Source: Aradus depressus
Taxonomy: Eukaryota; Arthropoda; Insecta; Hemiptera; Aradidae
Assembly (NCBI GenBank): GCA_963662175.1
Contig: OY759218.1
Coordinates: 1,116,001-1,180,000, forward strand
DNA length: 64,000 nt
Direction of reading: 5' to 3'
Part shown: piece by piece, positions 22,501-50,817 of the stretch
How positions within the stretch are numbered: position 1 is the first letter of the stretch
Layout: each line of letters starts with the position of its first letter
Program-made: the position numbers and the translations under genes
The notes under the pieces: generated by a model
Databases searched by the model: none
Seen by the model: only the letters and a program-made list of their open reading frames with translations
What the model was told of the DNA's origin: nothing

Positions 22501-22749
22501 ACGTGCTCAAAGTTATTTTTAACTTCCCGATTAAAATATCTGAATTAAGTGCCTCAGCTAGATTTCTAAGTGGCGATCCTGAGCTTGGTAGACTCCATTC
22601 TTCAAATTTCTCGCTTTTTAACGGTTTATAGATTTAATATTTGTTAAAACTGATAGAGAACGACCGGGATATCTGAATCCTACACTAAAATTGAAATAAA
22701 AATGTTTTTCAAAAAATTCGCGCTATTTAACGGTTTATAGGCTTAATAA

Positions 22750-26200: not shown

Positions 26201-29092
26201 CTTCCCGATTAAAATATCTGAATTAAGTGCCTCAGCTAGATTTCAAAGTGGCGATCCTGAGCTTGGTAGACTCCATTCTTCAAATTTCTCGCTTTTTAAC
26301 GGTTTATAGATTTAATATTTGTTAAGACTGATAGAGAACGACCGGGATATCTGAATCCTACACTAAAATTGAAAACAAAATGTTTTTCAAAAAATTCGCG
26401 CTATTTAACGGTTTATAGGCTTAATAATTGTTAAAACTGATACTACAGATTCAGATATATCCGGATAGTCCCATCCGAAGGACGACGTGCTCAAGGCTAT
26501 TTTCACTCTGTGAAATTTCACCTACCCAGGTTTATTTACATAACATACGTCTCATTATCGAGTACGTTACATTCGAAAAGGCCCTGGAGCATACCTTAAA
26601 GTCCCATCCGAAGGACGACGTGCTCAATGTTATATTCAACCTAAGTGAAATTTCACCTACCCAGGTTTATTTACATAACATACGTCTCATTATCAAGTAC
26701 CTCACGTTCGAAAAAGCCCTGGATCATCGCTTAAAGTCCCATTCGAAGGACGACGTGCTCAAAGTTATTTTTAACTTCCCGATTAAAATATCTGAATTAA
26801 GTGCCTCAGCTAGATTTCTAAGTGGCGATCCTGAGCTTGGTAGACTCCATTCTTCAAATGTCTCGCTTTTTAACGGTTTATAGATTTAATATTTGTTAAA
26901 ACTGATAGAGAACGACCGGGATATCTGAATCCTACACTAAAATTGAAATAAAAATGTTTTTCAAAAAATTCGCGCTATTTAACGGTTTATAGGCTTAATA
27001 ATTGTTGAAACTGATACGACAGATTCAGATATATCCGGAAAGTCCCATCCGAAGGACGACGTGCTCAAGGCTATTTTCAACCTGTGAAATTTCACCTACC
27101 CAGGTTTATTTACATAACATACGTCTCATTATCGAGTACCTCACATTCGAAAAAGCCCTGGATCATCGCTTAAAGTCCCATCCGAAGGACGACGTGCTCA
27201 AGGTTATATTTAACTTCCCGATTAAAACATCTGACTTAAGTGCCTCAGCTAGATTTCTAAGTGGCGGTCCTGAGCTCGGTAGAATTTCTCGCTTTTTCAC
27301 GGTTTATAGATTTAATATTTGTTAAGTCGATAGATGGTAGTAGGAAGTTGGCAGGAGTGTTGGGTGATGTCACGTACCCTATGTTGAGCAGAACGTTTAA
27401 GGATGCTAGGAAAGGTTCTAGCCGGAAAAGAGTGCGAAAACTGCCCCCAACGATTTTCGAATGAGCGATTGGCCAACAGTTTGCACATGTAAAAAAAAAA
27501 TTTCCTGAAAATATCAGCTCCCTACTCCCATTATTCGATGAGAAAAAAAATAAAAAGGCAATTTTAATTTGCCCCCTTGCTATTTAACGGTTTATAGGCT
27601 TAATAATTGTTAAAACTGATACGACTGATTCAGATATATCCGGAAAGTCCCATCCGAAGGACGACGTGCTCAAGGCTATTTTCAACCTGTAAAATTTCAC
27701 CTACCCAGGTTTATTTACATAACATACGTCTCATTATCAAGTACCTCACGTTCGAAAAAGCCCTGGATCATCGCTTAAAGTCCCATTCGAAGGACGACGT
27801 GCTCAAAGTTTTTTTTAACTTCCCGATTGAAATATCTGAATTAAGTGCCACAGCTAGATTTCTAAGTGGCGATCCTGAGCTTGGTAGACTCCATTCTTCA
27901 AATTTCTCGCTTTTTAACGGTTTATAGATTTAATATTTGTTAAGACTGATAGAGAACGACCGGGATATCTGAATCCTACACTAAAATTGAAATAAAAATG
28001 TTTTTCAAAACATTCGCGCTATTTAACGGTTTATAGGCTTAACAATTGTTAAAACTGATACTACAGATTCAGATATATCCGGATAGTCCCATCCGAAGGA
28101 CGACGTGCTCAAGGCTATTTTCACTCTGTGAAATTTCACCTACCCAGGTTTATTTACATAACATACGTCTCATTATCGAGTACTTTACATTCGAAAAGGC
28201 CCTGGAGCATACCTTAAAGTCCCATCCGAAGGACGACGTGCTCAAGGTTATTTTCAACCTAAGTGAAATTTCACCTACCCAGGTTTATTTACATAACATA
28301 CGTCTCATTATCAAGTACCTCACGTTCGAAAAAGCCCTGGATCATCGCTTAAAGTCCCATTCGAAGGACGACGTGCTCAAAGTTATTTTTAACTTCCCGA
28401 TTAAAATATCTGAATTAAGTGCCTCAGCTAGATTTCTAAGTGGCGATCCTGAGCTTGGTAGACTCCATTCTTCAAATTTCTCGCTTTTTAACGGTTTATA
28501 GATTTAATATTTGTTAAAACTGATAGAGAACGACCGGGATATCTGAATCCTACACTAAAATTGAAATAAAAATGTTTTTCAAAAAATTCGCGCTATTTAA
28601 CGGTTTATAGGCTTAATAATTGTTGAAACTGATACGACAGATTCAGATATATCCGGAAAGTCCCATCCGAAGGACGACGTGCTCAAGGTTATATTTAACT
28701 TCCCGATTAAAACATCTGACTTAAGTGCCTCAGCTAGATTTCTAAGTGGCGGTCCTGAGCTCGGTAGAATTTCTCGCTTTTTCACGGTTTATAGATTTAA
28801 TATTTGTTAAGTCGATAGATGGTAGTAGGAAGTTGGCAGGAGTGTTGGGTGATGTCACGTACCCTATGTTGAGCAGAACGTTTAAGGATGCTAGGAAAGG
28901 TTCTAGCCGGATAAGAGTGCGAAAACTGCCCCCAACGATTTTCGAATGAGCGATTGGCCAACAGTTTGCACATGTAAAAAACAAATTTTCCTGAAAATAT
29001 CAGCTCCCTACTCCCATTATTCGATGAGAAAAAAAATAAAAAGGCAATTTTAATTTGCCCCCTTGCTATTCAACGGTTTATAGGCTTAATAA
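23223..29092 (+). repeat. 5870-bp super-repeat, copy 2
   Basis: Same unit order as copy 1 (23223, 23662, 24236, 24810, 25415, 25854, 26428, 27002, 27607, 28046, 28620), with the three private marks at about 25525, 26244 and 27824. Where I compared lines at offset 5870 they were identical. The match under this offset runs from about 17467 to about 23390, which is longer than one period, as expected for a direct tandem duplication. Confidence 0.92.
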
Positions 29093-32000
29093 TTGTTAAA
29101 AATGATACGACAGATTCAGATATATCCGGAAAGTCCCATCCGAAGGAAGACGTGCTCAAGGCTATTTTCAACATGTAAAATTTCACCTACCCAGGTTTAT
29201 TTACATAACATACGTCTCATTATCAAGTACCTCACGTTCGAAAAAGCCCTGGATCATCGCTCAAAGTCCCATTCGAAGGACGACGTGCTCAAAGTTTTTT
29301 TTAACTTCCCGATTAAAATATCTGAATTAAGTGCCTCAGCTAGATTTCTAAGTGGCGATCCTGAGCTTGGTAGACTCCATTCTTCAAATTTCTCGCTTTT
29401 TAACGGTTTGTAGATTTAATATTTGTTAAGACTGATAGAGAACGACCGGGATATCTGAATCCTACACTAAAATTGAAATAAAAATGTTTTTCAAAACATT
29501 CGCGCTATTTAACGGTTTATAGGCTTAACAATTGTTAAAACTGATACTACAGATTCAGATATATCCGGATAGTCCCATCCGAAGGACGACGTGCTCAAGG
29601 CTATTTTCACTCTGTGAAATTTCACCTACCCAGGTTTATTTACATAACATACGTCTCATTATCGAGTACTTTACATTCGAAAAGGCCCTGGAGCATACCT
29701 TAAAGTCCCATCCGAAGGACGACGTGCTCAAGGTTATTTTCAACCTAAGTGAAATTTCACCTACCCAGGTTTATTTACATAACATACGTCTCATTATCAA
29801 GTACCTCACGTTCGAAAAAGCCCTGGATCATCGCTTAAAGTCCCATTCGAAGGACGACGTGCTCAAAGTTATTTTTAACTTCCCGATTAAAATATCTGAA
29901 TTAAGTGCCTCAGCTAGATTTCTAAGTGGCGATCCTGAGCTTGGTAGACTCCATTCTTCAAATTTCTCGCTTTTTAACGGTTTATAGATTTAATATTTGT
30001 TAAAACTGATAGAGAACGACCGGGATATCTGAATCCTACACTAAAATTGAAATAAAAATGTTTTTCAAAAAATTCGCGCTATTTAACGGTTTATAGGCTT
30101 AATAATTGTTGAAACTGATACGACAGATTCAGATATATCCGGAAAGTCCCATCCGAAGGACGACGTGCTCAAGGTTATATTTAACTTCCCGATTAAAACA
30201 TCTGACTTAAGTGCCTCAGCTAGATTTCTAAGTGGCGGTCCTGAGCTCGGTAGAATTTCTCGCTTTTTCACGGTTTATAGATTTAATATTTGTTAAGTCG
30301 ATAGATGGTAGTAGGAAGTTGGCAGGAGTGTTGGGTGATGTCACGTACCCTATGTTGAGCAGAACGTTTAAGGATGCTAGGAAAGGTTCTAGCCGGAAAA
30401 GAGTGCGAAAACTGCCCCCAACGATTTTCGAATGAGCGATTGGCCAACAGTTTGCACATGTAAAAAACAAATTTTCCTGAAAATATCAGCTCCCTACTCC
30501 CATTATTCGATGAGAAAAAAAATAAAAAGGCAATTTTAATTTGCCCCCTTGCTATTCAACGGTTTATAGGCTTAATAATTGTTAAAAATGATACGACAGA
30601 TTCAGATATATCCGGAAAGTCCCATCCGAAGGAAGACGTGCTCAAGGCTATTTTCAACATGTGAAATTTCACCTACCCAGGTTTATTTACATAACATACG
30701 TCTCATTATCAAGTACCTCACGTTCGAAAAAGCCCTGGATCATCGCTCAAAGTCCCATTCGAAGGACGACGTGCTCAAAGTTTTTTTTAACTTCCCGATT
30801 AAAATATCTGAATTAAGTGCCTCAGCTAGATTTCTAAGTGGCGATCCTGAGCTTGGTAGACTCCATTCTCCAAATTTCTCGCTTTTTAACGGTTTATAGA
30901 TTTAATATTTGTTAAAACTGATAGAGAACGACCGGGATATCTGAATCCTACACTAAAATTGAAATAAAAATGTTTTTCAAAAAATTCGCGCTATTTAACG
31001 GTTTATAGGCTTAATAATTGTTGAAACTGATACGACAGATTCAGATATATCCGGAAAGTCCCATCCGAAGGACGACGTGCTCAAGGTTATATTTAACTTC
31101 CCGATTAAAACATCTGACTTAAGTGCCTCAGCTAGATTTCTAAGTGGCGGTCCTGAGCTCGGTAGAATTTCTCGCTTTTTCACGGTTTATAGATTTAATA
31201 TTTGTTAAGTCGATAGATGGTAGTAGGAAGTTGGCAGGAGTGTTGGGTGATGTCACGTACCCTATGTTGAGCAGAACGTTTAAGGATGCTAGGAAAGGTT
31301 CTAGCCGGATAAGAGTGCGAAAACTGCCCCCAACGATTTTCGAATAAGCGATTGGCCAACAGTTTGCACATGTAAAAAACAAATTTTCCTGAAAATATCA
31401 GCTCCCTACTCCCATTATTCGATGAGAAAAAAAATAAAAAGGCAATTTTAATTTGCCCCCTTGCTATTCAACGGTTTATAGGCTTAATAATTGTTAAAAA
31501 TGATACGACAGATTCAGATATATCCGGAAAGTCCCATCCGAAGGAAGACGTGCTCAAGGCTATTTTCAACATGTGAAATTTCACCTACCCAGGTTTATTT
31601 ACATAACATACGTCTCATTATCAAGTACCTCACGTTCGAAAAAGCCCTGGATCATCGCTCAAAGTCCCATTCGAAGGACGACGTGCTCAAAGTTTTTTTT
31701 AACTTCCCGATTAAAATATCTGAATTAAGTGCCTCAGCTAGATTTCTAAGTGGCGATCCTGAGCTTGGTAGACTCCATTCTTCAAATTTCTCGCTTTTTA
31801 ACGGTTTATAGATTTAATATTTGTTAAAACTGATAGAGAACGACCGGGATATCTGAATCCTACACTAAAATTGAAATAAAAATGTTTTTTAAAAAATTCG
31901 CGCTATTTAACGGTTTATAGGCTTAATAATTGTTAAAACTGATACTACAGATTCAGATATATCCGGAAAGTCCCATCCAAAGGACGACGTGCTCAAGGCT

Positions 32001-35000
32001 ATTTTCAACCTGTGAAATTTCACCTACCCAGGTTTATTTACATAACATACGTCTCATTATCGAGTACTTTACATTCGAAAAGGCCCTGGAGCATACCTCA
32101 AAGTCCCATCCGAAGGACGACGTGCTCAAGGTTATTTTCAACCTAAGTGAAATTTCACCTACCCAGGTTTATTTACATAACATACGTCTCATTATCAAGT
32201 ACCTCACGTTCGAAAAAGCCCTGGATCATCGCTTAAAGTCCCATTCGAAGGACGTCGTGCTCAAAGTTATTTTTAACTTCCCGATTAAAATATCTGAATT
32301 AAGTGCCTCAGCTAGATTTCTAAGTGGCGATCCTGAGCTTGGTAGACTCCATTCTTCAAATTTCTCGCTTTTTAACGGTTTATAGATTTAATATTTGTTA
32401 AAACTGATAGAGAACGACCGGGATATCTGAATCCTACACTAAAATTGAAATAAAAATGTTTTTCAAAAAATTCGCGCTATTTAACGGTTTATAGGCTTAA
32501 TAATTGTTGAAACTGATACGACAGATTCAGATATATCCGGAAAGTCCCATCCGAAGGACGACGTGCTGAAGGCTATTTTCAACCTGTGAAATTTCACCTA
32601 CCCAGGTTTATTTACATGACATACGTCTCATTATCAAGTACCTCACGTTCGAAAAAGCCCTGGATCATCGCTTAAAGTCCCATTCGAAGGACGACGTGCT
32701 CAAGGTTATTTTCAACCTAAGTGAAATTTCACCTACCCAGGTTTATTTACATAACATACGTCTCATTATCAAGTACCTCACGTTCGAAAAAGCCCTGGAT
32801 CATCGCTTAAAGTCCCATTCGAAGGACGATGTGCTCAAAGTTATTTTTAACTTCCCGATTAAAATATCTGAATTAAGTGCCTCAGCTAGATTTCTAAGTG
32901 GCGATCCTGAGCTTGGTAGACTCCATTCTTCAAATTTCTCGCTTTTTAACGGTTTATAGATTTAATATTTGTTAAAACTGATAGAGAACGACCGGGATAT
33001 CTGAATCCTACACTAAAATTGAAATAAAAATGTTTTTCAAAAAATTCGCGCTATTTAACGGTTTATAGGCTTAATAATTGTTGAAACTGATACGACAGAT
33101 TCAGATATATCCGGAAAGTCCCATCCGAAGGACGACGTGCTCAAGGTTATATTTAACTTCCCGATTAAAACATCTGACTTAAGTGCCTCAGCTAGATTTC
33201 TAAGTGGCGGTCCTGAGCTCGGTAGAATTTCTCGCTTTTTCACGGTTTATAGATTTAATATTTGTTAAGTCGATAGATGGTAGTAGGAAGTTGGCAGGAG
33301 TGTTCGGTGATGTCACGTACCCTATGTTGAGCAGAACGTTTAAGGATGCTAGGAAAGGTTCTAGCCGGATAAGAGTGCGAAAACTGCCCCCAACGATTTT
33401 CGAATGAGCGATTGGCCAACAGTTTGCACATGTAAAAAAAAAATTTCCTGAAAATATCAGCTCCCTACACCCATTATTCGATGAGAAAAAAAATAAAAAG
33501 GCAATTTTAATTTGCCCCCTTGCTATTTAACGGTTTATAGGCTTAATAATTGTTAAAACTGATACGACAGATTCAGATATATCCGGAAAGTCCCATTCGA
33601 AGGACGACGTGCTCAAGGTTATTTTCAACCTAAGTGAAATTTCACCTACCCAGGTTTATTTACATAACATACGTCTCATTATCAAGTACCTCACGTTCGA
33701 AAAAGCCCTGGATCATCGCTTAAAGTCCCATTCGAAGGACGATGTGCTCAAAGTTATTTTTAACTTCCCGATTAAAATATCTGAATTAAGTGCCTCAGCT
33801 AGATTTCTAAGTGGCGATCCTGAGCTTGGTAGACTCCATTCTTCAAATTTCTCGCTTTTTAACGGTTTATAGATTTAATATTTGTTAAAACTGATAGAGA
33901 ACGACCGGGATATCTGAATCCTACACTAAAATTGAAATAAAAATGTTTTTCAAAAAATTCGCGCTATTTAACGGTTTATAGGCTTAATAATTGTTGAAAC
34001 TGATACGACAGATTCAGATATATCCGGAAAGTCCCATCCGAAGGACGACGTGCTGAAGGCTATTTTCAACCTGTGAAATTTCACCTACCCAGGTTTATTT
34101 ACATAACATACGTCTCATTATCGAGTACCTCACATTCGAAAAAGCCCTGGATCATCGCTTAAAGTCCCATCCGAAGGACGACGTGCTCAAGGTTATATTT
34201 ACTTCCCGATTAAAACATCTGACTTAAGTGCCTCAGCTAGATTTCTAAGTGGCGGTCCTGAGCTCGGTAGAATTTCTCGCTTTTTCACGGTTTATAGATT
34301 TAATATTTGTTAAGTCGATAGATGGTAGTAGGAAGTTGGCAGGAGTGTTGGGTGATGTCACGTACCCTATGTTGAGCAGAACGTTTAAGGATGCTAGGAA
34401 AGGTTCTAGCCGGAAAAGAGTGCGAAAACTGCCCCCAACGATTTTCGAATGAGCGATTGGCCAACAGTTTGCACATGTAAAAAAAAAATTTCCTGAAAAT
34501 ATCAGCTCCCTACTCCCATTATTCGATGAGAAAAAAAATAAAAAGGCAATTTTAATTTGCCCCCTTGCTGTTTAACGGTTTATAGGCTTAATAATTGTTA
34601 AAACTGATACGACTGATTCAGATATATCCGGAAAGTCCCATCCGAAGGACGACGTGCTCAAGGCTATTTTCAACCTGTGAAATTTCACCTACCCAGGTTT
34701 ATTTACATAACATACGTCTCATTATCAAGTACCTCACGTTCGAAAAAGCCCTGGATCATCGCTTAAAGTCCCATTCGAAGGACGACGTGCTCAAAGTTTT
34801 TTTTAACTTCCCGATTAAAATATCTGAATTAAGTGCCACAGCTAGATTTCTAAGTGGCGATCCTGAGCTTGGTAGACTCCATTCTTCAAATTTCTCGCTT
34901 TTTAACGGTTTATAGATTTAATATTTGTTAAGACTGATAGAGAACGACCGGGATATCTGAATCCTACACTAAAATTGAAATAAAAATGTTTTTCAAAACA

Positions 35001-38000
35001 TTCGCGCTATTTAACGGTTTATAGGCTTAACAATTGTTAAAACTGATACTACAGATTCAGATATATCCGGATAGTCCCATCCGAAGGACGACGTGCTCAA
35101 GGCTATTTTCAACCTGTGAAATTTCACCTACCCAGGTTTATTTACATAACATACGTCTCATTATCGAGTACTTTACATTCGAAAAGGCCCTGGAGCATAC
35201 CTCAAAGTCCCATCCGAAGGACGACGTGCTCAAGGTTATTTTCAACCTAAGTGAAATTTCACCTACCCAGGTTTATTTACATAACATACGTCTCATTATC
35301 AAGTACCTCACGTTCGAAAAAGCCCTGGATCATCGCTTAAAGTCCCATTCGAAGGACGTCGTGCTCAAAGTTATTTTTAACTTCCCGATTAAAATATCTG
35401 AATTAAGTGCCTCAGCTAGATTTCTAAGTGGCGATCCTGAGCTTGGTAGACTCCATTCTTCAAATTTCTCGCTTTTTAACGGTTTATAGATTTAATATTT
35501 GTTAAAACTGATAGAGAACGACCGGGATATCTGAATCCTACACTAAAATTGAAATAAAAATGTTTTTCAAAAAATTCGCGCTATTTAACGGTTTATAGGC
35601 TTAATAATTGTTGAAACTGATACGACAGATTCAGATATATCCGGAAAGTCCCATCCGAAGGACGACGTGCTCAAGGTTATATTTAACTTCCCGATTAAAA
35701 CATCTGACTTAAGTGCCTCAGCTAGATTTCTAAGTGGCGGTCCTGAGCTTGGTAGAATTTCTCGCTTTTTCACGGTTTATATATTTAATAATTGTTAAGT
35801 CGATAGATGGTAGTAGGAAGTTGGCAGGAGTGTTGGGTGATGTCACGTACCCTATGTTGAGCAGAACGTTTAAGGAAGCTAGGAAAGGTTCTAGCCGGAT
35901 AAGAGTGCGAAAACTGCCCCCAACGATTTTCGAATGAGCGATTGGCCAACAGTTTGCACATGTAAAAGAAACATTTTCCTGAAAATATCAGCTCTTTACT
36001 CCCATTATTCGATGAGAAAAAAAATAAAAAGGCAATTTTAATTTGCCCCCTTGCTATTTAACGGTTTATAGGCTTAATAATTGTTAAAACTGATACGACA
36101 GATTCAGATATATCCGGAAAGTCCCATCCGAAGGACGACGTGCTCAAGGCTATTTTCAACCTGTGAAATTTCACCTACCCAGGTTTATTTACATAACATA
36201 CGTCTCATTATCAAGTACCTCACGTTCGAAAAAGCCCTGGATCATCGCTTAAAGTCCCATTCGAAGGACGACGTGCTCAAAGTTTTTTTTAACTTCCCGA
36301 TTAAAATATCTGAATTAAGTGCCTCAGCTAGATTTCTAAGTGGCGATCCTGAGCTTGGTAGACTCCATTCTTCAAATTTCTCGCTTTTTAACGGTTTATA
36401 GATTCAATATTTGTTAAAACTGATAGAGAACGACCGGGATATCTGAATCCAACACTAAAATTGAAATAAAAATGTTTTTCGAAAAATTCGCGCTATTTAA
36501 CGGTTTATAGGCTTAATAATTGTTAAAACTGATACTACAGATTCAGATATATCCGGAAAGTCCCATCCGAAGGACGACGTGCTCAAGGCTATTTTCAACC
36601 TGTGAAATTTCACCTACCCAGGTTTATTCACATAACATACGTCTCATTATCGAGTACTTTACATTCGAAAAGGCCCTGGAGCATACCTCAAAGTCCCATC
36701 CGAAGGACGACGTGCTCAAGGTTATTTTCAACCTAAGTGAAATTTCACCTACCCAGGTTTATTTACATAACATACGTCTCATTATCGAGTACCTCACGTT
36801 CGAAAAAGCCCTGGAGCATCGCTTAGAGTCCCATTCGAAGGACGACGTGCTCAAGGTTTTTTTTTTCTTCCCGATTAAAACATCTGACTTAAGTACCTCA
36901 GCTAGATTTCTAAGTGGCGGTCCTGAGCTCGGTAGAATTTCTCGCTTTTTCACGGTTTATAGATTTAATATTTGTTAAGTCGATAGATGGTAGTAGGAAG
37001 TTGGCAGGAGTGTTCGGTGATGTCACGTACCCTATGTTGAGCAGAACGTTTAAGGATGCTAGGAAAGGTTCTAGCCGGATAAGAGTGCGAAAACTGCCCC
37101 CAACGATTTTCGAATGAGCGATTGGCCAACAGTTTGCACATGTAAAAAAAACATTTTCCCGAAAATATCAGCTCCCTACTCCCATTATTCGATGAGAAAA
37201 AAAATAAAAAGGCAATTTTAATTTGCCCCCTTGCTATTTACCGGTTTATAGGCTTAATAATTGTTAAAACTGATACGACAGATTCAGATATATCCGGAAA
37301 GTCCCATCCGAAGGACGACGTGCTCAAGGCTATTTTCAACCTGTGAAATTTCACCTACCCAGGTTTATTTACATAACATACGTCTCATTATCAAGTACCT
37401 CACGTTCGAAAAAGCCCTGGATCATCGCTTAAAGTCCCATTCGAAGGACGACGTGCTCAAGGTTATTTTCAACCTAAGTGAAATTTCACCTACCCAGGTT
37501 TATTTACATAACATACTTCTCATTATCGAGTACTTTACATTCGAAAAGGCCCTGGAGCATACCTTAAAGTCCCATCCGAAGGACGACGTGCTCAAAGTTA
37601 TTTTTAACTTCCCGATTAAAATATCTGAATTAAGTGCCTCAGCTAGATTTCTAAGTGGCGATCCTGAGCTTGGTAGACTCCATTCTTCAAATTTCTCGCT
37701 TTTTAACGGTTTATAGATTTAATATTTGTTAAAACTGATAGAGAACGACCGGGATATCTGAATCCTACACTAAAATTGAAATAAAAATGTTTTTCAAAAA
37801 ATTCGCGCTATTTAACGGTTTATAGGCTTAATAATTGTTGAAACTGATACGACAGATTCAGATATATCCGGAAAGTCCCATCCGAAGGACGACGTGCTCA
37901 AAGCTATTTTCAACCTGTGAAATTTCACCTACCCAGGTTTATTTACATAACATACGTCTCATTATCGAGTACCTCACATTCGAAAAAGACCTGGATCATC

Positions 38001-38574
38001 GCTTAAAGTCCCATCCGAAGGACGACGTGCTCAAGGTTATTTTCAACCTAAGTGAAATTTCACCTACGCAGGTTTATTTACATAACAGACGTCTCATTAT
38101 CGAGTACCTCACGATCGAAAAAGCCCTAGATCACCGTTTAAAGTCCCATCCGAAGGACGACGTGCTCAAGGTTATATTTAACTTCCCGATTAAAACATCT
38201 GACTTAAGTGCCTCAGCTAGATTTCTAAGTGGCGGTCCTGAGCTCGGTAGAATTTCTCGCTTTTTCACAGTTTATAGATTTAATATTTGTTAAGTCGATA
38301 GATGGTAGTAGGAAGTTGGCAGGAGTGTTGGGTGATGTCACGTACCCTATGTTGAGCAGAACGTTTAAGGATGCTAGGAAAGGTTCTAGCCGGATAAGAG
38401 TGCGAAAACTGCCCCCAACGATTTTCGAATGAGCGATTGGCCAACAGTTTGCACATGTAAAAAAAAAATTTCCTGAAAATATCAGCTCCCCACTCCCATT
38501 ATTCGATGAGAAAAAAAATGAAAAGGCAATTTTAATTTGCCCCCTTGCTATTTGACGGTTTATAGGCTTAATAA
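29093..38574 (+). repeat. Array block with shortening higher-order repeats, then irregular units
   Basis: It begins S 29093, L 29532, C473 30106 (1486 bp), then S 30579, C473 31018 (912 bp), S 31491, L 31930, L 32504, C 33078. Unit 33550 is 441 bp because its subrepeat keeps the two bases (CCTAAGTG) missing from other first subrepeats. Then C 33991, S 34595, L 35034, C 35608, S 36081, C740 36520, L 37261, C740 37835. The shrinking period suggests stepwise loss of L units. Confidence 0.87.
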
Positions 38575-39093
38575 TTGTTAAAACTGATACGACAGATTCA
38601 GATATATCCGGAATGTCCCATCCGAAGGACGACGTGCTCAAGGCTATTTTCAACCTGTGAAATTTCACCTACCCAGGTTTATTTACATAACATACTTCTC
38701 ATTATCGAGTACTTTACATTCGAAAAGGCCCTGGAGCATACCTTAAAGTCCCATCCGAAGGACGACGTGCTCAAAGTTATTTTTAACTTCCCGATTAAAA
38801 TATCTGAATTAAGTGCCTCAGCTAGATTTCTAAGTGGCGATCCTGAGCTTGGTAGACTCCATTCTTCAAATTTCTCGCTTTTTAACGGTTTATAGATTTA
38901 ATATTTGTTATTTTCAACCTTAGTGAAATTTCACCTACCCAGGTTTATTTACATAACATACGTCTCATTATCAAGTACCTCACGTTCGAATAAGCCCTGG
39001 ATCATCGCTTAAAGTCCCATTCGAATTGAGAAAAAAAATAATAAAGCAATTTTAATTTGCCCCCTTGCTATTTAACGGTTTATAGGCTTAATA
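38575..39093 (+). repeat. Rearranged satellite (two abnormal joins) before the SINE
   Basis: A short unit runs to ATATTTGTTA at 38910, then jumps into the middle of a subrepeat (TTTTCAACC). That subrepeat then jumps at CCCATTCGAA (about 39019-39025) into the tail of a C segment (TTGAGAAAAAAAATAA...). GTTA and ATTCGA are common to both sides of the respective joins, consistent with microhomology-mediated deletion. The subrepeat here also has CGAATAAGCCC, a private change. Confidence 0.82.
39082..39093 (+). repeat. SINE target-site duplication, left copy
   Basis: ATAGGCTTAATA, identical to 39432-39443. It is ordinary satellite sequence, normally present once at this place in a unit, so the second copy was made by the SINE insertion. 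Confidence 0.92.
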
Positions 39094-39104
39094 GAGGGCG
39101 CCGG

Positions 39105-39115
39105 TAGCTCAGTGG
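39105..39115 (+). promoter_or_regulatory. SINE Pol III A box
   Basis: TAGCTCAGTGG fits the A-box consensus TRGCNNAGYNGG (one base short of the full consensus length). It is the normal D-arm position of a tRNA-like head starting near 39096. Confidence 0.85.
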
Positions 39116-39148
39116 TCTGCGTGCCTGACTTCTGAGCTCATGATAGTG

Positions 39149-39159
39149 GGTTCGTAACC
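39149..39159 (+). promoter_or_regulatory. SINE Pol III B box
   Basis: GGTTCGTAACC fits the B-box consensus GGTTCGANNCC with one mismatch (T for A). It lies 33 bases after the A box, a normal spacing. The counterpart in the satellite (minus strand) is decayed beyond use. Confidence 0.85.
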
Positions 39160-39355
39160 CGACCGAGGCCCTTAGTTTATTTTATCTGGGAGGTAAAATA
39201 AACTTACAATACGCCGTCCTTCGGATGGGACGTTAAGCGATGGTCCCGAGCCTGTACGATGTCAGGTACTCGTTAAAGACCCCTACCTTAGGTGAATAAA
39301 AAATTTAGGGTAGGCAAAATTTATGACTCCCACAGTAGAGTCGGGCTCATGTCCA

Positions 39356-39380
39356 CCAGAGTGACGAAAGAGCACTCTGG
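39356..39380 (+). other. Hairpin in the SINE 3' region
   Basis: CCAGAGTG (39356-39363) pairs with CACTCTGG (39373-39380) across a nine-base loop, a perfect 8-bp stem. It may matter for recognition by the partner LINE reverse transcriptase, but that is inference. Confidence 0.6.
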
Positions 39381-39431
39381 TAGTAGGCGATATGACCTCG
39401 TAGTTAAAGCCCGGGCATGAGTCATAAAACC

Positions 39432-39443
39432 ATAGGCTTAATA
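39432..39443 (+). repeat. SINE target-site duplication, right copy
   Basis: ATAGGCTTAATA, after which the satellite unit continues normally (ATTGTTAAAACTG). Confidence 0.92.
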
Positions 39444-39444
39444 A

Positions 39445-42400
39445 TTGTTAAAACTGATACGACAGATTCAGATATATCCGGAAGCTCCCATCCGAAGGAC
39501 GACGTGCTCAAGGCTATTTTCAACCTGTGAAATTTCACCTACCCAGGTTTATTTACATAACATACGTCTCATTATCAAGTACCTCACGTTCGAAAAAGCC
39601 CTGGATCATCGCTTAAAGTCCCATTCGAAGGACGACGTGCTCAAAGTTTTTTTTAACTTCCCGAATAAAATATCTGAATAAAGTGCCTCAGCTAGATTTC
39701 TAAGTGGCGATCCTGAGCTTGGTAAACTCCATTCTTCAAATTTCTCGCTTTTTAACGGTTTATAGATTTAATATTTGTTAAGACTGATAGAGAACGACCG
39801 GGATATCTGAATCCTACACTAAAATTGAAATAAAAATGTTTTTCAAAAAATTCGCGCTATTTAACGGTTTATAGGCTTAATAATTGTTGAAACTGATACG
39901 ACAGATTCAGATATATCCGGAAAGTCCCATCCGAAGGACGACGTGCTCAAGGCTATTTTCAACCTGTGAAATTTCACCTACCCAGGTTTATTTACATAAC
40001 ATACGTCTCATTATCGAGTACCTCACGGTCGAAAAAGCCCTGGATCACCGCTTAAAGTCCCATCCGAAGGACGACGTGCTCAAGGTTATATTTAACTTCC
40101 CGATTAAAACATCTGACTTAAGTGCCTCAGCTAGATTTCTAAGTGGCGGTCCTGAGCTCGGTAGAACTTCTCGCTTTTTCACGGTTTATAGATGTAATAT
40201 TTGTTAAGTCGATAGATGGTAGTAGGAAGTTGGCAGGAGTGTTGGGTGATGTCACGTACCCTATGTTGAGCAGAACGTTTAAGGATGCTAGGAAAGGTTC
40301 TAGCCGGATAAGAGTGCGAAAACTGCCCCCAACGATTTTCGAATGAGCGATTGGCCAACAGTTTGCACATGTAAAAAAAAAAATTTTCCTGAAAATATCA
40401 GCTCCCTACTCCCATTATTCGATGAGAAAAAAAATAAAAAGGCAATTATAATTTGCCCCCTTGCTATTTAACGGTTTATAGGCTTAATAATTGTTAAAAC
40501 AGATACGACAGATTCAGATATATCCGGAAAGTCCCATCCGAAGGACGACGTGCTCAAGGCTATTTTCAACCTGTGAAATTTCACCTACCCAGGTTTATTT
40601 ACATAACATACGTCTCATTATCAAGTACCTCACGTTCGAAAAAGCCCTGGATCATCGCTTTAAGTCCCATTCGAAGGACGACGTGCTCAAAGTTATTTTT
40701 AACTTCCCGATTAAAATATCTGAATTAAGTGCCTCAGCTAGATTTCTAAGTGGCGATCCTGAGCTTGGTAGACTCCATTCTTCAAATTTCTCGCTTTTTA
40801 ACGGTTTATAGATTTAATATTTGTTAAAACGGATAGAGAACGACCGGGATATCTGAATCCTACACTAAAATTGAAATAAAAATGTTTTTCAAAAAATTCG
40901 CGCTATTTAACGGTTTATAGGCTTAATAATTGTTGAAACTGATACGACAGATTCAGATATATCCGGAAAGTCCCATCCGAAGGACGACGTGCTCAAGGCT
41001 ATTTTCAACCTGTGAAATTTCACCTGCCCAGGTTTATTTACATAACACACGTCTCATTATCGAGTACCTCACATTCGAAAAAGACCTGGATCATCGCTTA
41101 AAGTCCCATCCGAAGGACGACGTGCTCAAGGTTATTTTCAACCTAAGTGAAATTTCACCTACCCAGGTTTATTTACATAACATACGTCTCATTATCAAGT
41201 ACCTCAAGTTCGAAAAAGCCCTGGATCATCGCTTAAACTCCCATTCGAAGGACGCCGTGCTCAAAGTTATTTTTAACTTCCCGATTAAAATATCTGAATT
41301 AAGTGCCTCAGCTAGATTTCTAAGTGGCGATCCTGAGCTTGGTAGACTCCATTCTTCAAATTTCTCGCATTTTAACGGTTTATAGATTTAATATTAGTTA
41401 AAACTGATAGAGAACTACCGGGATATCTGAATCCTACACTAAAATTGAAATAAAAATGTTTTTCAAAAAATTCGCGCTATTTAACGGTTTATAGGCTTAA
41501 TAATTGTTGAAACTGATACGACAGATTCAGATATATCCGGAAAGTCCCATCCGAAGGACGACGTGCTCAAGGCTATTTTCAACCTGTGAAATTTCACCTA
41601 CCCAAGTTTATTTACATAACATACGTCTCATTATCGAGTACCTCACATTCGAAAAAGCCCTGGATCATCGCTTAAAGTCTCATCCGAAGGACGACGTGCT
41701 CAAGGTTATTTTTAACTTCCCGATTAAAATATCTGAATTAAGTGCCTCAGCTAGATTTCTAAGCGGCGATCCTGAGCTTGGTAGACTCCATTCTTCAAAT
41801 TTCTCGCTTTTTAACGGTTTATAGATCTAATATTTGCTAAAACTGATAGAGAACGACCGGGATATCTGAATCCTACACTAAAATTGAAATAAAAATGTTT
41901 TTCAAAAAATTCGCGCTATTTAACGGTTTATAGGCTTAATAATGGTTGAAACTGATACGACAGATTCAGATATATCCGGAAAGTCCCATCCGAAGGACGA
42001 CGTGCTCAAGGCTATTTTCAACCTGTGAAATTTCACCTACCCAGGTTTATTTACATAACATACGTCTCATTATCGAGTACCTCACATTCGAAAAAGACCT
42101 GGATCATCGCTTAAAGTCCCATCCGAAGGACGACGTGCTCAAGGTTATTTTCAACCTAAGTGAAATTTCACCTACCCAGGTTTATTTACATAACATACGT
42201 CTCATTATCGAGTACCTCACATTCGAAAAAGCCCTGGAGCATCGCTTAAAGTCCCATTCGAAGGACGACGTGCTCAAGGTTATTTTTAACTTCCCGATTA
42301 AAACATCTGACTTAAGTGCCTCAGCTAGATTTCTAAGTGGCGGTCCTGAGCTCGGTAGAATTTCTCGCTTTTTCATGGTTTATAGATTTAATATTTGTTA

Positions 42401-45400
42401 AGTCGATAGATGGTAGTAGGAAGTTGGCAGGAGTGTTGGGTGATGTCACGTACCCTATGTTGAGCAGAACGTTTAAGGATGCTAGGAAAGGTTCTAGCCG
42501 GATAAGAGTGCGAAAACTGCCCCCAACGATTTTCGAATGAGCGATTGGCCAACAGTTTGCACAAGTAAAAAAAAAAGTTTCCTGAAAATATCAGCTCCCT
42601 ACTCCCATTATTCGATGAGAAAAAAAATAAAAAGGCAACTTTAATTTGCCCCCTTGCTATTTAACGGTTTATAGGCTTGATAATTGTTAAAACTGATACG
42701 ACAGATTCAGATATATCCGGAAAGTCCCATCCGAAGGACGACGTGCTCAAGGCTATTTCAACCGGAGAAATTTCACCTACCCACATTTATTCACATAACA
42801 TATGTCTCATTATCAAGTACCTCACGTTCGAAAAAGCCCTGGATCATCGCTTAAAGTCCCATTCGAAGGACGACGTGCTCAAAGTTTTTTTTAACCTAAG
42901 TGAAATTTCACCTACCCAGGTTTATTTACATAACATACGTCTCATTATCAAGTACCTCACGTTCGAAAAAGCCCTGGATCATCGCTTAAAGTCCCATTCG
43001 AAGGACGACGTGCTCAAGGTTATTTTTAACTTCCCGATTAAAATATCTGAATTAAGTGCCTCAGCTAGATTTCTAAGTGCCGATCCTGAGCTTGGTAGAC
43101 TCCATTCTTCAAATTTCTCGCTTTTTAACGGTTTATAGATTTAATATTTGTTAAAACTGATAGAGAACGACCGGGATATCTGAATCCTACACTAAAATTG
43201 AAATAAAAATGTTTTTCAAAAAATTCGCGCTATTTAACGGTTTATAGGCTTAATAATTGTTGAAACTGATACGACAGATTCAGATATATCCGGAAAGTCC
43301 CATCCGAAGGACGACATGCTCAAGGCTATTTTCAACCTGTGAAATTTCACCTACCCAGGTTTATTTACATAACATACGTCTCATTATCGAGTACTTTACA
43401 TTCGAAAAGGCCCTGGAGCATACCTTAAAGTCCCATCCGAAGGACAACGTGCTCAAAGTTATTTTCAACCTAAGTGAAATTTCACCTACCCAGGTTTATT
43501 TACATAACATACGTCTCATTATCAAGTACCTCACGTTCGAAAAAGCCCTGGATCATCGCTTAAAGTCCCATTCGAAGGACGACGTGCTCAAGTTTATTTT
43601 TAACTTCCCGATTAAAATATCTGAATTAAGTGCCTCAGCTAGATTTCTAAGTGCCGATCCTGAGCTTGGTAGACTCCATTCTTCAAATTTCTCGCTTTTT
43701 AACGGTTTATAGATTTAATATTTGTTAAAACTGATAGAGAACGACCGGGATATCTGAATCCTACACTAAAATTGAAATAAAAATGTTTTTCAAAAAATTC
43801 GCGCTATTTAACGGTTTATAGGCTTAATAATTGTTAAAACTGATACGACAGATTCAGATATATCCGGAAAGTCCCATCCGAAGGACGACGTGCTCAAGGC
43901 TATTTTCAACCTGTGAAATTTCACCTACTCAGGTTTATTTACATAACATACGTCTCATTATCGAGTACTTTACATTCGAAAAGGCCCTGGAGCATACCTT
44001 AAAGTCCCATCCGAAGGACGACGTGCTCAAGGTTATTTTCAACCTAAGTGAAATTTCACCTACCCAGGTTTATTTACATAACATACGTCTCATTATCAAG
44101 TACCTCACGTTCGAAAAAGCCCTGGATCATCGCTTAAAGTCCCATTCGAAGGACGACGTGCTCAAAGTTATTTTTAACTTCCCGATTAAAATATCTGAAT
44201 AAAATGCCTCAGCTAGATTTCTAAGTGGCGATCCTGAGCTTGGTAGACTCCATTCTTCAAATTTCTCGCTTTTTAACGGTTTATAGATTTAATATTTGTT
44301 AAAACTGATAGAGAACGACCGGGATATCTGAATCCTACACTAAAATTGAAATAAAAATGTTTTTCAAAAAATTCGCGCTATTTAACGGTTTATAGGCTTA
44401 ATAATTGTTGAAACTGATACGACAGATTCAGATATATCCGGAAAGTCCCATCCGAAGGACGACGTGCTCAAGGCTATTTTAAACCTGTGAAATTTCACCT
44501 ACCCAGGTTTATTTACATAACATACGTCTCATTATCGAGTACTTTACATTCGAAAAGGCCCTGGAGCATACCTTAAAGTCCCATCCGAAGGACGACGTGC
44601 TCAAGGTTATTTTCAACCTAAGTGAAATTTCACCTACCCAGGTTTATTTACATAACATACGTCTCATTATCGAGTACCTCACGTTCGAAAAAGCCCTGGA
44701 GCATCGATTAAAGTCCCATTCGAAGGACGACGTGCTCAAGGTTTTTTTTAACTTCCCGATTAAAACATCTTACTTAAGTGCCTCAGCTAGATTTCTAAGT
44801 GCCGATCCTGAGCTTGGTAGACTCCATTCTTCAAATTTCTCGCTTTTTAACGGTTTATAGATTTAATATTTGTTAAAACTGATAGAGAACGACCGGGATA
44901 TCTGAATCCTACACTAAAATTGAAATAAAAATGTTTTTCAAAAAATTCGCGCTATTTAACGGTTTATAGGCTTAATAATTGTTGAAACTGATACGACAGA
45001 TTCAGATATATCCGGAAAGTCCCATCCGAAGGACGACATGCTCAAGGCTATTTTCAACCTGTGAAATTTCACCTACCCAGGTTTATTTACATAACATACG
45101 TCTCATTATCGAGTACTTTACATTCGAAAAGGCCCTGGAGCATACCTTAAAGTCCCATCCGAAGGACAACGTGCTCAAAGTTATTTTCAACCTAAGTGAA
45201 ATTTCACCTACCCAGGTTTATTTACATAACATACGTCTCATTATCAAGTACCTCACGTTCGAAAAAGCCCTGGATCATCGCTTAAAGTCCCATTCGAAGG
45301 ACGACGTGCTCAAGTTTATTTTTAACTTCCCGATTAAAATATCTGAATTAAGTGCCTCAGCTAGATTTCTAAGTGCCGATCCTGAGCTTGGTAGACTCCA

Positions 45401-48400
45401 TTCTTCAAATTTCTCGCTTTTTAACGGTTTATAGATTTAATATTTGTTAAAACTGATAGAGAACGACCGGGATATCTGAATCCTACACTAAAATTGAAAT
45501 AAAAATGTTTTTCAAAAAATTCGCGCTATTTAACGGTTTATAGGCTTAATAATTGTTGAAACTGATACGACAGATTCAGATATATCCGGAAAGTCCCATC
45601 CGAAGGACGACGTGCTCAAGGCTATTTTAAACCTGTGAAATTTCACCTACCCAGGTTTATTTACATAACATACGTCTCATTATCGAGTACTTTACATTCG
45701 AAAAGGCCCTGGAGCATACCTTAAAGTCCCATCCGAAGGACGACGTGCTCAAGGTTATTTTCAACCTAAGTGAAATTTCACCTACCCAGGTTTATTTACA
45801 TAACATACGTCTCATTATCGAGTACCTCACGTTCGAAAAAGCCCTGGAGCATCGATTAAAGTCCCATTCGAAGGACGACGTGCTCAAGGTTTTTTTTAAC
45901 TTCCCGATTAAAACATCTTACTTAAGTGCCTCAGCTAGATTTCTAAGTGGCGGTCCTGAGCTCGGTAGAATTTCTCGCTTTTTCACGGTTTATAGATTTA
46001 ATATTTGTTAAGTCGATAGATGGTAGTAGGAAGTTGGCAGGAGTGTTGGGTGATATCACGTACCCTATGTTGAGCAGAACGTTTAAGGATGCTAGGAAAG
46101 GTTCTAGCCGGATAAGAGTGCGAAAACTGCCCCCAACGATTTTCGAATGAGCGATTGGCCAACAGTTTGCACATGTAAAAAAAAAATTTTCCTGAAAATA
46201 TCAGCTCCCTACTCCCATTATTCGATGAGAAAAAAAATAAAAAGGCAATTTCAATTTGCCCCCTTGCTATTTAACGGTTTATAGGCTTAATAAATGTTAA
46301 AACTGATACGACAGATTCAGATATATCCGGAAAGTCCCATCCGAAGGACGACGTGCTCAAGGCTATTTTCAACCTGTGAAATTTCACCTACCCAGGTTTA
46401 TTTACATAACATACGTCTCATTATCAAGTACCTCACGTTCGAAAAAGCCCTGGATCATCGCTTAATGTCCCATTCGAAGGACGACGTGCTCAAAGTTATT
46501 TTTAACTTCCCGATTAAAATATCTGAATTAAGTGCCTCAGCTAGATTTCTAAGTGGCGATCCTGAGCTTGGTAGACTCCATTCTTCAAATTTCTCGCTTT
46601 TTAACTTTTTATAGATTTAATATTTGTTAAAACTGATAGAGAACGACCGGGATATCTGAATCCTACACTAAAATTGAAATAAAAATGTTTTTCAAAAAAT
46701 TCGCGCTATTTAACGGTTTATAGACTTAATAATGGTTGAAACTGATACGACAGATTCAGATATATCCGGAAAGTCCCATCCGAAGGACGACGTGCTCAAG
46801 GCTATTTTCAACCTGTGAAATTTCACCTACCCAGGTTTATTTACATAACATACGTCTCATTATCGAGTACTTCACATTCGAAAAAGCCCTGGATCATCGC
46901 TTAAAGTCCCATCCGAAGGACGACGTGTTCAAGGTTATTTTCAACCTAAGTGAAATTTCACCTACTCAGGTTTATTTACATAACATACGTCTCATTATCG
47001 AGTACCTCACATTCGAAAAAGCCCTGGAGCATCACTTAAGTCCCATCCGAAGGACGACGTGCTCAAGGTTATATTTAACTTCCCGATTAAAACATCTGAC
47101 TTAAGTGCCTCAGCTAGATTTCTAAGTGGCGATCCTGAGCTTGGTAGACTCCATTCTTCAAATTTCTCGCTTTTTAACGGTTTATAGATTTAATATTTGT
47201 TAAAACTGATAGAGAACGACCGGGATATCTGAATCCTACACTAAAATTGAAATAAAAATGTTTTTCAAAAAATTCGCGCTATTTAACGGTTTATAGGCTT
47301 AATAATTGTTGAAACTGATACGACAGATTCAGATATATCCGGAAAGTCCCATCCGAAGGACGACGTGCTCATAGCTATTTTCAACCTGTGAAATTTCACC
47401 TACCCAGGTTTATTTACATAACATACGTCTCATTATCGAGTACCTCACATTCGAAAAAGCCCTGGATCATCGCTTAAAGTCCCATCCAAAGGACGACGTG
47501 CTCAAAGTTATTTTTAACTTCCCGATTAAAATATCTGAATTAAGTGCCTCAGCTAGATTTCTAAATGGCGATCCTGAGCTTGGTAGACTCCATTCTTCAA
47601 ATTTCTCGCTTTTTAACGGTTTATAGATTTAATATTTGTTAAAACTGATATAGAACAACCGGATTATCTGAATGCTACACAAAAATCAAAATCAAAATGT
47701 TTTTTTTTTAAATTCGCGCTATTTAACGGTTTATAGGTTTAATAATTGTTAAAACTGATACTACAGATTCAGATATATCCGGAAAGACCTATCCGAAGGA
47801 CGACGTGCTCAAGGCTATTTTCAACCTGTGAAATTTCACCTACCCAGGTTTATTTACATAACATACGTCTCATTATCGAGTACTTTACATTCGAAAAGGC
47901 ATCTGAGCATACCTTAAAGTCCCATCCGAAGGACGACGTGCTCAAAGTTATTTTTAACTTCCCGAATAAAATATCTGAATTAAGTGCCTCAGCTAGATTT
48001 CTAAGTGGCGATCCTGAGCTTGGTAGACTCCATTCTTCAAATTTCTCGCTTTTTAACGGTTTATAGATTTAATATTTGTTAAAACTGATAGAGAACGACC
48101 GGGATATCTGAATCCTACACTAAAATTGAAATAAAAATGTTTTTCAAACAATTCGCGCTATTTAACGGTTTATAGGCTTAATAATTGTTGAAACTGATAC
48201 GACAGATTCAGATATATCTGGAAAGTCCCATCCGAAGGACGACGTGCTCAAGGCTATTTTCAAACTGTGAAATTTCACCTACCCAGGTTTATTTACATAA
48301 CATACGTCTCATTATCGGGTACTTTACATTCGAAAAGGCCCTGGAGCATACCTTTAAGTCCCATCCGAAGGACGACGTGCTCAAGGTTATTTTCAACCGA

Positions 48401-50817
48401 AGTTAAATTTCACCTACCCAGGTTTATTCACATAACATACGTCTCATTATCAAGTACCTCACGTTCGAAAAAGCCCTGGATCATCGCTTAAAGTCCCATT
48501 CGAAGGACGACGTGCACAAAGTTATTTTTAACTTCCCGAATAAAATATCAGAATTAAGTGCCTCAGCTAGATTTCTAAGTGGCGATCCTGAGCTTGGTAG
48601 ACTCCATTCTTCAAATGTCTCGCTTTTTAACGGTTTATAGATTTAATATTTGTTAAAACTGATAGAGAACGACCGGGATATCTGAATCCTACACTAAAAT
48701 TGAAATAAAAATGTTTTTCAAACAATTCGCGCTATTTAACGGTTTATAGGCTTAATTATTGTTGAAACTGATACGACAGATTCAGATATATCTGGAAAGT
48801 CCCATCCGAAGGACGGCGTGCTCAAGGCTATTTTCAACCTGTGAAATTTCACCTACGCAGGTTTATTTACATAACATACGTCTCATTATCGAGTACCTCA
48901 CATTCAAAAAAGACCTGGATCATCGCTTAAAGTCCAGTCCGAAGGACGACGTGCTCAAGGTTATTTTCAACCTAAGTGAAATTTCACCTACGCAGGTTTA
49001 TTTACATAACATACGTCTCATTATCGAGTACCTCACATTCGAAAAAGCCCTGGAGCATCGCTTAAAGTCCCAATCGAAGGACGACGTGCTCAAGGTTATT
49101 TTTAACTTCCCGATTAAAACATCTGACTTAGGTGCCTCAGCTAGATTTCTAAGTGGCGGTCCTGAGCTCGGTAGAATTTCTCGCTTTTTCACGGTTTATA
49201 GATTTAATATTTGTTAAGTCGATAGATGGTAGTAGGAAGTTGGCAGGAGTGTTGGGTGATGTCACGTACCCTATGTTGAGCAGAACGTTTAAGGATGCTA
49301 GGAAAGGTTCTAGCCGGATAAGAGTGCGAAAACTGCCCCCAACGATTTTCGAATGAGCGATTGGCCAACAGTTTGCACATGTAAAAAAAAATTTTCCTGA
49401 AAATATCAGCTCCCTACTCCCATTATTCGATGAGAAAAAAAATAAAAAGGCAATATCAATTTGCCCCCTTGCTATTTGACGGTTTATAGGCTTAATAATT
49501 GTTAAAACTGATACGACAGATTCAGATATATCCGGAAATTCCCATCCGAAGGACGACGTGCTCAAGGTTATTTTCAACCTAAGTGAAATTTCACCTACCC
49601 AGGTTTATTTACATAACATACGTCTCATTATCAAGTACCTCACGTTCGAAAGAGCCCTGGATCATCGCTTAAAGTCCCATCCGACGGACGACGTGCTCAA
49701 GGCTATTTTCAACCTGTGAAATTTCACCTACCCAGGTTTATTTACAAAACATACGTCTCATTATCAAGAACCTCACGTTCGAAAGAGCCCTGGATCATCG
49801 CTTAAAGTCCCATTCGAAGGACGACGTGCTCAAAGTTATTTTTAACTTCCCGATTAAAATATCTGAATTAAGTGCCTCAGCTAGATTTCTAAGTGGCGAT
49901 CCTGAGCTTGGTAGACTCCATTCTTCAAATTTCTCGCTTTTTAACGGTTTATAGATTTAATATTTGTTAAAACTGATAGAGAACGACCGGGATATCTGAA
50001 TCCTACACTAAAATTGAAATAAAAATGTGTTTCAAAAAATTCACCCTATTTAACGGTTTATAGGCTTAATAATTGTTGAAACTGATACGACAGATTCAGA
50101 TATATCCGGAAAGTCCCATCCGAAGGACGACGTGCTCATAGCTATTTTCAACCTGTGAAATTTCACCTACCCAGGTTTATTTACATAACATACGTCTCAT
50201 TATCGAGTACCTCACATTCGAAAAAGCCCTGGATCATCGCTTAAAGTCCCATCCGAAGGACGACGTGCTCAAAGTTATTTTTAATTTCCCGATTAAAATA
50301 TCTGAATTAAGTGCCTCAGCTAGATTTCTAAGTGGCGATCCTGAGCTTGGTAGACTCCATTCTTCAAATTTCTCGCTTTTTAACGGTTTATAGATTTAAT
50401 ATTTGTTAAAACTGATAGAGAACGACCGGGATATCTGAATCCTACACTAAAATTGAAATAAAAATGTTTTTCAAAAAATTCGCGCTATTTAACTGTTTAT
50501 AGGCTTAATAATATTTGAAACTGATACGACAGATTCAGATATATCCGGAAAGTCCCATCCAGAGGACGACGTGCTCAAAGTTATTTTTAACTTTCCGATT
50601 AAAATATCTGAATTAAGTGCCTCAGCTAGATTTCTAAGTGGCGATCCTGAGCTTGGTAGACTCCATTCTTCAAATTTCTCGCTTTTTAACGGTTTATAGA
50701 TTTAATATTTGTTAAAACTGATAGAGAACGACCGGGATATCTGAATCCTACACTAAAATTGAAATAATAATGTTTTTCAAAAAATTCGAGCTATTTAACG
50801 GTTTATAGGCTTAATAA
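39445..50817 (+). repeat. Array block right of the SINE, mixed L, S and long C units
   Basis: Unit starts: 39445 S, 39884 C607, 40491 S, 40930 L, 41504 S, 41943 C740, 42683 L, 43257 L, 43831 L, 44405 L, 44979 L, 45553 C741, 46294 S, 46733 (573), 47306 (440), 47746 S, 48185 L, 48759 C740, 49499 L, 50073 S and 50512 (about 305 bp, one box only). Copies differ more from one another than at 17-29 kb. Unit 47306 ends with an older spacer (ACACAAAAATC). No gene is seen. Confidence 0.87.
43048..45938 (+). repeat. Nested duplication p-r-q-p'-q'
   Basis: The block at about 43048-43835 recurs 1722 bp later (44770-45557) with the rare marks GACGACATGC, GGACAACGTG, CAAGTTTATT and AGTGCCGATCC. The block at 44405-44790 recurs 1148 bp later (45553-45938) with TTTTAAACCTGTG and ATCTTACTTAAG. 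The intervening unit 43831-44404 was not carried along. Confidence 0.78.

What the first reader, a model, noticed from the sequence alone, without database searches (positions are those of the whole stretch)
39094..39431. The satellite is an amplified antisense SINE
Seen: the reverse complement of SINE 39211-39280 aligns to satellite 19061-19133 with 60 of 70 aligned bases identical and three gaps, including an uninterrupted GTCCCATCCGAAGGACG. The next satellite part continues collinearly (AACTTCCCGATTAAAATA against ACCTCCCAGATAAAATA). The stretch opposite the tRNA-like head (AAGTGCCTCAG to GAGCTCGGTAGAC) matches 30 of 47 bases ungapped. On the other side, AAATTT..CCTACCC also matches. Because the homology enters the tRNA-derived head, the direction must be SINE to satellite. 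Inference: an old reverse-oriented SINE copy became the seed of a 60 kb array with several higher-order levels. Satellites seeded by mobile elements are known; one that keeps most of a SINE, including its head, is less usual.
Basis: partly seen in the sequence, partly recalled or inferred. Interest (0 to 1): 0.92.

Follow-up and report, generated by a model that had tools for sequence, protein, structure and literature searches.

The report
Satellite DNA seeded by old SINE
A long block of tandemly repeated DNA in what looks like an arthropod genome grew out of an ancient copy of a tRNA-derived jumping element (a SINE), and elsewhere in the same genome two neighbouring SINE copies can be seen taking the likely first step of such a process.

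Summary
The SINE's reverse complement matches the satellite far above chance (score 150; best of 1000 shuffles 39). The SINE at 39094-39431 is not the seed: it is a late insert with 12-bp target-site duplications from a genome-wide family covering about 8% of a small random sample. The satellite carries SINE nt ~36-230 of 338: the 3' half of the tRNA head and the body, but neither box A nor the 3' tail. At 20 sites where old SINE copies differ from young ones, the satellite has the old state at 16 and the young at 3, so the seed dates from the family's early phase. The head match to the old consensus is 27 of 37, reached by 0 of 200,000 shuffles. Elsewhere, a three-unit array of the same SINE shows the likely first step: its middle unit is a single-crossover recombinant of two neighbouring insertions (19 of 19 internal variable columns). 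SINE-derived satellites are known from squamate reptiles; this is a more fully amplified new member of that kind.

The parts
39094..39431 (+). Full-length SINE copy (338 bp) inserted in the satellite; member of a dispersed family
   Evidence: 40 scored genome matches at 96-100% identity on 12 contigs; flanked by 12-bp target-site duplications
39094..39166 (+). tRNA-derived head of the SINE
   Evidence: Box A-like TAGCTCAGTGG and box B-like GGTTCG read by eye; old-copy consensus called tRNA-Gln-like [2,74] by ARAGORN at a relaxed threshold; weak tRNA-Sec match, E 0.36
39082..39093 (+). Left target-site duplication ATAGGCTTAATA
39432..39443 (+). Right target-site duplication ATAGGCTTAATA; the undivided site is present in the satellite consensus
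39129..39322 (+). Part of this SINE that is homologous to the satellite (SINE nt ~36-229)
3750..64000 (+). Satellite array (SINE-derived parts on the - strand), runs past the window's end
   Evidence: TRF; 262 cores; 54,369 window bases covered by the 439-bp consensus
4943..5381 (+). Example 439-bp unit: truncated core copy, then full SINE-derived segment, then non-SINE flank
4988..5184 (-). SINE-derived segment of that unit (nt ~229 to ~36 of the SINE, approximate ends read by eye)
19061..19133 (-). Satellite stretch quoted in the finding
   Evidence: 60 of 70 identical
19273..19513 (+). Example of the 241-bp flank module found only in some units
   Evidence: not covered by the 439-bp consensus; also matched on other contigs and read next to satellite units in the 4 such loci fetched

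Best explanation
An early copy of a tRNA-derived SINE (nt ~36-230 retained) was captured, with flanking DNA, in a tandem duplication. The part nt ~98-230 was duplicated again inside it, giving the 133-135-bp unit. Unequal crossing-over then spread the composite unit into arrays with higher-order repeats on several chromosomes. The satellite lost its SINE promoter (no box A, degenerate box B) and drifts as ordinary satellite DNA, while the parent SINE family stayed active and later inserted a copy back into the array. Shown here: the homology, its old-family character, the re-insertion and, at another locus, a crossover between two neighbouring SINEs that made a third unit. Inferred: that the satellite itself began by such a crossover, its loss of promoter activity, and the order of later steps.
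For: Alignment and shuffles (best units 162-164 against shuffle maxima of 34-39). Head: the main satellite consensus matches the old SINE consensus at 27 of 37 tRNA-part sites and 31 of 41 for nt 36-76; no single-base shuffle of 200,000 reached either. At 20 sites where old copies carrying SINE-only sequence (18 of 25) differ from the young consensus, the satellite has the old state at 16, the young at 3; with all 25 copies it is 14 and 3 of 19. These include a 3-bp gap and the box B GAAA. Satellites form one clade (UFBoot 100) and group with five old SINE copies (split 98; 43 SINE and 40 satellite rows). Nascent array L034: three units of 400 bp; the middle unit equals the last at the first 5 variable columns and the first at the next 14; spacers identical at 95 of 95 bases. 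SINE insert with 12-bp duplications.
Against: The tree is unrooted, its old SINE and satellite branches are long (attraction is possible), and sharing old states is expected under either direction; the direction rests on the tRNA head. No tRNA family of Rfam reaches its threshold on the head, and an old copy gave no tRNA match at all. The head alone, freely aligned, is only modestly above shuffles. The satellite is more diverged from the old consensus (75%) than 18 old dispersed copies on average (82%, range 73-93). No dispersed copy with the satellite's own internal junction was found: 22 genome matches with up to 3 mismatches, none with fewer than 2; the 4 fetched are truncated or altered SINEs. 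25 of 28 whole-genome searches did not complete.
Confidence: 0.9

Rival explanations
1. Satellite to SINE: a tRNA-headed transcript joined a piece of the satellite, so that the SINE body is satellite-derived.
For: Old SINE states equal satellite states, which this order would also give.
Against: Homology crosses into the tRNA-derived half, 27 of 37 sites, no shuffle of 200,000, so the satellite would have needed to contain half a tRNA that the SINE then completed. SINE hairpins are partly broken in the satellite: 33 of 51 pairs kept, 1 of them changed on both sides (the pairs were chosen on the SINE, which favours it).
Confidence: 0.05
2. The satellite was seeded by a different SINE family that shares only a conserved body domain with this one.
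For: Only about 75% identity to the old consensus; SINE families are known to share body domains (recalled).
Against: Collinear match in head, body and both sides of the core, with shared old states and a shared gap.
Confidence: 0.08
3. Chance similarity of AT-rich repeats around one shared 17-bp word.
For: The longest exact block is short.
Against: Scores about 4 times the best shuffle; the SINE parts outside the homology behave as random.
Confidence: 0.005
4. The arrays are spread as internal repeats of another mobile element (as Helitron-borne satellites are), not by recombination alone.
For: 99-100% identical 241-bp modules occur on C2, C4, C6, C7, C9, C10 and C13 among 40 scored matches.
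Against: In the 4 such loci fetched the module sits within or at the edge of longer arrays; array ends were not compared, so this is weak.
Confidence: 0.2

Closest known systems
SINE-derived satellites (sSats) of squamate reptiles (PMC10702118; abstract, Background and Discussion read)
   Same: tRNA-type SINE; tandem unit is a part of the SINE; a longer terminal unit reaches further toward one SINE end; arrays at several loci; unequal recombination among SINE copies and insertion into the same locus named there as likely origins
   Different: Those had not amplified like typical satellites, and the paper leaves open whether they exist outside squamates. Here the unit includes flank, has several higher-order levels, and the seed is an ancient copy; the genome is probably an arthropod's.
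Hy/Pol III (Hydromantes) and Xenopus OAX / satellite 1
   Same: tRNA-like part inside a tandem repeat
   Different: PMC10702118 judges their link to a SINE unproven; here the dispersed parent SINE is found in the same genome with matching old states
Satellites from other mobile elements (LINE, LTR, MITE, Helitron; listed in PMC9659126 and PMC6947457, passages seen)
   Same: Mobile element as seed
   Different: Different element class; here a tRNA SINE

Membership tests
SINE (for 39094-39431) | Dispersed copies in many places of the genome | tested here: met
   40 scored matches on 12 contigs, 4424 first-look candidates; 43 hits in 110 kb of random non-satellite sequence
SINE (for 39094-39431) | Target-site duplications | tested here: met
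   Found by script in 9 of 10 forward copies, the window copy among them; the tenth is visible by eye beyond the scan range.
SINE (for 39094-39431) | Pol III head from a tRNA | tested here: met
   ARAGORN tRNA-Gln-like [2,74] on the old consensus, relaxed threshold; no tRNA call on the window itself at default and none at Rfam gathering score
SINE (for 39094-39431) | 3' end taken from a partner LINE | not tested
   Partner LINE not sought
SINE-derived satellite | Tandem unit homologous to a SINE of the same genome | tested here: met
SINE-derived satellite | Long head-to-tail arrays, homogenised | tested here: met
   262 cores in the window; 93% mean pairwise identity of 49 units
SINE-derived satellite | Longer terminal SINE unit beside the short repeat | tested here: met
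   102 of 262 core copies in the window reach from nt 50 or lower to 220 or higher; 39 are the extra short unit
SINE-derived satellite | Heterochromatic or subtelomeric place | not testable with these tools
   Window lies 1.1 Mb from the start of C13, but module matches also lie inside other contigs

The most novel reading that the evidence does not exclude
This genome is a working satellite nursery: a very abundant, long-lived SINE keeps landing near itself, unequal crossing-over between neighbours keeps founding new tandem arrays (one caught with a single recombinant unit), and one ancient founder became a multi-chromosome satellite into which the parent SINE still inserts.
Probability: 0.35. 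Interest if true: 0.68.

Novelty: new member of a known kind. Interest (0 to 1): 0.55.

Why it matters
How satellites start is rarely visible, because the seed is gone or unrecognisable. Here parent family, mature satellite and a nascent array of the same SINE are in one genome, so the steps from mobile element to satellite can be dated and tested. It also bears on the open question in PMC10702118 whether SINE-derived satellites exist outside squamates.

Tried and rejected
Searches for the SINE core elsewhere: four pattern scans of viral contigs gave 0 matches; one scan of genome contigs gave one hit in a bacterial MAG, where only 22 bases align to the SINE at that place; phages 0. Core strings in paper text: none, one unrelated virology paper. 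The 151-aa open frame of the satellite has no homologue at E 0.001 and no Pfam family: not treated as a gene. Idea that the internal junction is still being re-created by young SINEs: no support. Idea that 5' truncation clusters near nt 33-42, which would explain the satellite's head end: 4 of 59 3'-complete rows start at nt 31-42 (two of them units of one L034 array) and other starts are scattered, so not claimed. Rfam mir-9437 resemblance of the SINE core (E 0.0074, far below its gathering score): one paper search found only a passing mention in an unrelated paper (listing); not pursued. Naming the organism failed: the HSP70 search did not complete; the LINE at the window's left end is nearest, among named matches, to spider and Rhodnius elements at 36-39%, hence 'probably arthropod'.

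Full report
What was claimed and checked. The quoted alignment is exact: 60 of 70 aligned bases, three gap positions, and the 17-base block uninterrupted. Against a 439-bp consensus of 49 units (mean pairwise identity 93%) the reverse complement of the SINE scores 150, whereas 1000 dinucleotide shuffles reach at most 39 and the forward strand 19. The match covers SINE nt 42-229, 136 of 184 bases, and nt 36-228 for the best units against a family consensus. SINE nt 1-41 and 230-338 have no match in the array above shuffles, so they act as a negative control and mark the ends of the homology.

Array anatomy. The window holds 262 copies of the core. They fall into four kinds by what lies on each side: 102 and 102 of the two kinds that make up the 439-bp unit, 39 of the extra short unit and 19 others. 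In SINE orientation, the full unit runs from the 3' half of the tRNA head through the body to nt ~230; the short unit repeats nt ~98-230 only. The junction keeps an AGG that occurs at both ends in the SINE (by eye), which fits a duplication through short homology. The rest of the unit is flank without SINE similarity seen here. Higher-order periods of 2192, 1183 and 1621 bp are visible in parts of the array. Some units carry an extra 241-bp module.

The SINE at 39094 is a late insert. It lies between two copies of ATAGGCTTAATA, a site present undivided in the satellite consensus. It cannot be the seed. Its family is genome-wide: the 40 matches scored are 96-100% identical over nearly the whole length. 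In 11 random non-satellite 10-kb stretches (two of them without any hit) there were 43 hits covering 8,727 of 110,000 bases; 1 of the 12 random stretches drawn, at round coordinates of my choice, was itself satellite. This sample is small.

Which SINE was the seed. From fetched stretches, leaving out three loci that contain arrays (L025, L028, L044) besides those already set aside as satellite, I took 25 SINE fragments that are under 88% identical to the young consensus over at least 60 bases, or full copies under 82% to the window's SINE, and built an old consensus. Of 19 sites in the satellite region where old and young differ, the satellite has the old state at 14 and the young at 3. By satellite variant it is 12-13 old and 3-4 young. 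Restricting to the 18 of 25 fragments that also carry SINE-only sequence gives 16 old and 3 young of 20 (binomial 0.002, but neighbouring gap columns are not independent). The old states include a canonical box B (GTTCGAAACC) and a 3-bp gap. So the seed left the family early. The satellite is 75% identical to the old consensus; 18 old dispersed copies average 82% (range 73-93%).

Direction. The tree of 43 SINE and 40 satellite sequences (at most four per satellite locus, best-scoring first) puts the satellites in one clade, grouped with five old SINE copies, but it has no root and these branches are long. The argument for SINE to satellite is the head. In nt 36-72 the main satellite consensus matches the old SINE consensus at 27 of 37 sites, and the diverged array L033 at 24 of 37; no shuffle of 200,000 reached either. 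A free local alignment of the head alone, against the window's SINE, is weaker: 0.65% of 2000 shuffles reach it. The old consensus is recognised as tRNA-Gln-like by ARAGORN at a relaxed threshold. At default ARAGORN calls no tRNA in the window, Rfam tRNA families do not reach their thresholds, and an old copy, L019, gave no tRNA match. Hairpins of the SINE RNA are partly broken in the satellite (33 of 51 pairs kept; fold z -2.3 against -0.8), which fits loss of constraint, though the pairs were chosen on the SINE.

Mechanism seen in the act. Locus L034 (C3, 20.0 Mb) holds a full-length SINE and a 5'-truncated SINE, each with its own target-site duplication (by eye), and between them a third unit, period 400 bp. 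At 19 internal variable columns the middle unit equals the last one at the first five and the first one at the next fourteen; three more columns at the ragged end of the cut (two like the first unit, one like the last) are not counted. The two spacers are identical at 95 of 95 bases. This is what one unequal crossover between neighbouring SINEs gives. It is a separate array from the satellite and includes the SINE tail, so it shows that the step happens, not that the satellite began so. No copy with the satellite's own internal junction was found among 22 genome matches with up to 3 mismatches.

Spread. Matches to the 241-bp module lie on C2, C4, C6, C7, C9, C10 and C13 among 40 scored; in the four such loci fetched (C2 twice, C6, C9) satellite units lie beside it. 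A diverged form on C2 (L033) shares, by eye, the head end, the internal junction and the start of the flank with the window's form, which suggests one origin. How the arrays moved between chromosomes is open.

What is known. SINE-derived satellites were described in squamates (PMC10702118; abstract, Background and Discussion read), with the same pattern of a short repeat and a longer terminal unit; the authors left open whether they occur elsewhere. Reviews list other cases, including an insect microsatellite tied to a SINE-named MITE-like element of Helicoverpa (PMC9659126, PMC6947457; passages). My searches for an arthropod case (listings, most papers not opened) showed none that I recognised, in open-licence PMC papers only.

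Noticed in passing
L034:7889-9025: Nascent 400-bp, three-unit array of the same SINE whose middle unit is a single-crossover recombinant of its neighbours.
   Followed up: yes
SINE 3' ends in L003-L040: Many copies end in CCTAA repeats (complement of the insect telomere repeat TTAGG, recalled): 39 of 58 3'-complete copies have at least one CCTAA, 32 have two to four; some older copies shown end in an AACTA-like tail instead.
   Followed up: partly
window 1-3561: Jockey/X-element-like LINE on the - strand (ORF1 at 2296-3561 without Pfam match; endonuclease and partial reverse transcriptase at 1-1734) next to the array's left edge.
   Followed up: partly
window 39242-39278: SINE core resembles the Rfam family mir-9437 (E 0.0074, far below gathering score); also weakly in an old copy, L019 (E 0.32).
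   Followed up: no
window 4329-4784 and equivalents: Open frame of about 151 aa repeated through the array; no homologue among proteins at E 0.001.
   Followed up: partly
L033 (C2:50000001-50010000): Diverged version of the satellite with a different flank, met in 1 of 12 random stretches.
   Followed up: partly
L044:1350-2147: 143-bp tandem repeat, 5.5 copies, between two satellite stretches; its relation to anything else was not tested.
   Followed up: no
L012:1501-2210: Two SINE copies in the same orientation about 40 bp apart; 6 same-strand (two of them in the L034 array) and 5 opposite-strand pairs within 300 bp among 65 copies of at least 100 aligned bases.
   Followed up: partly
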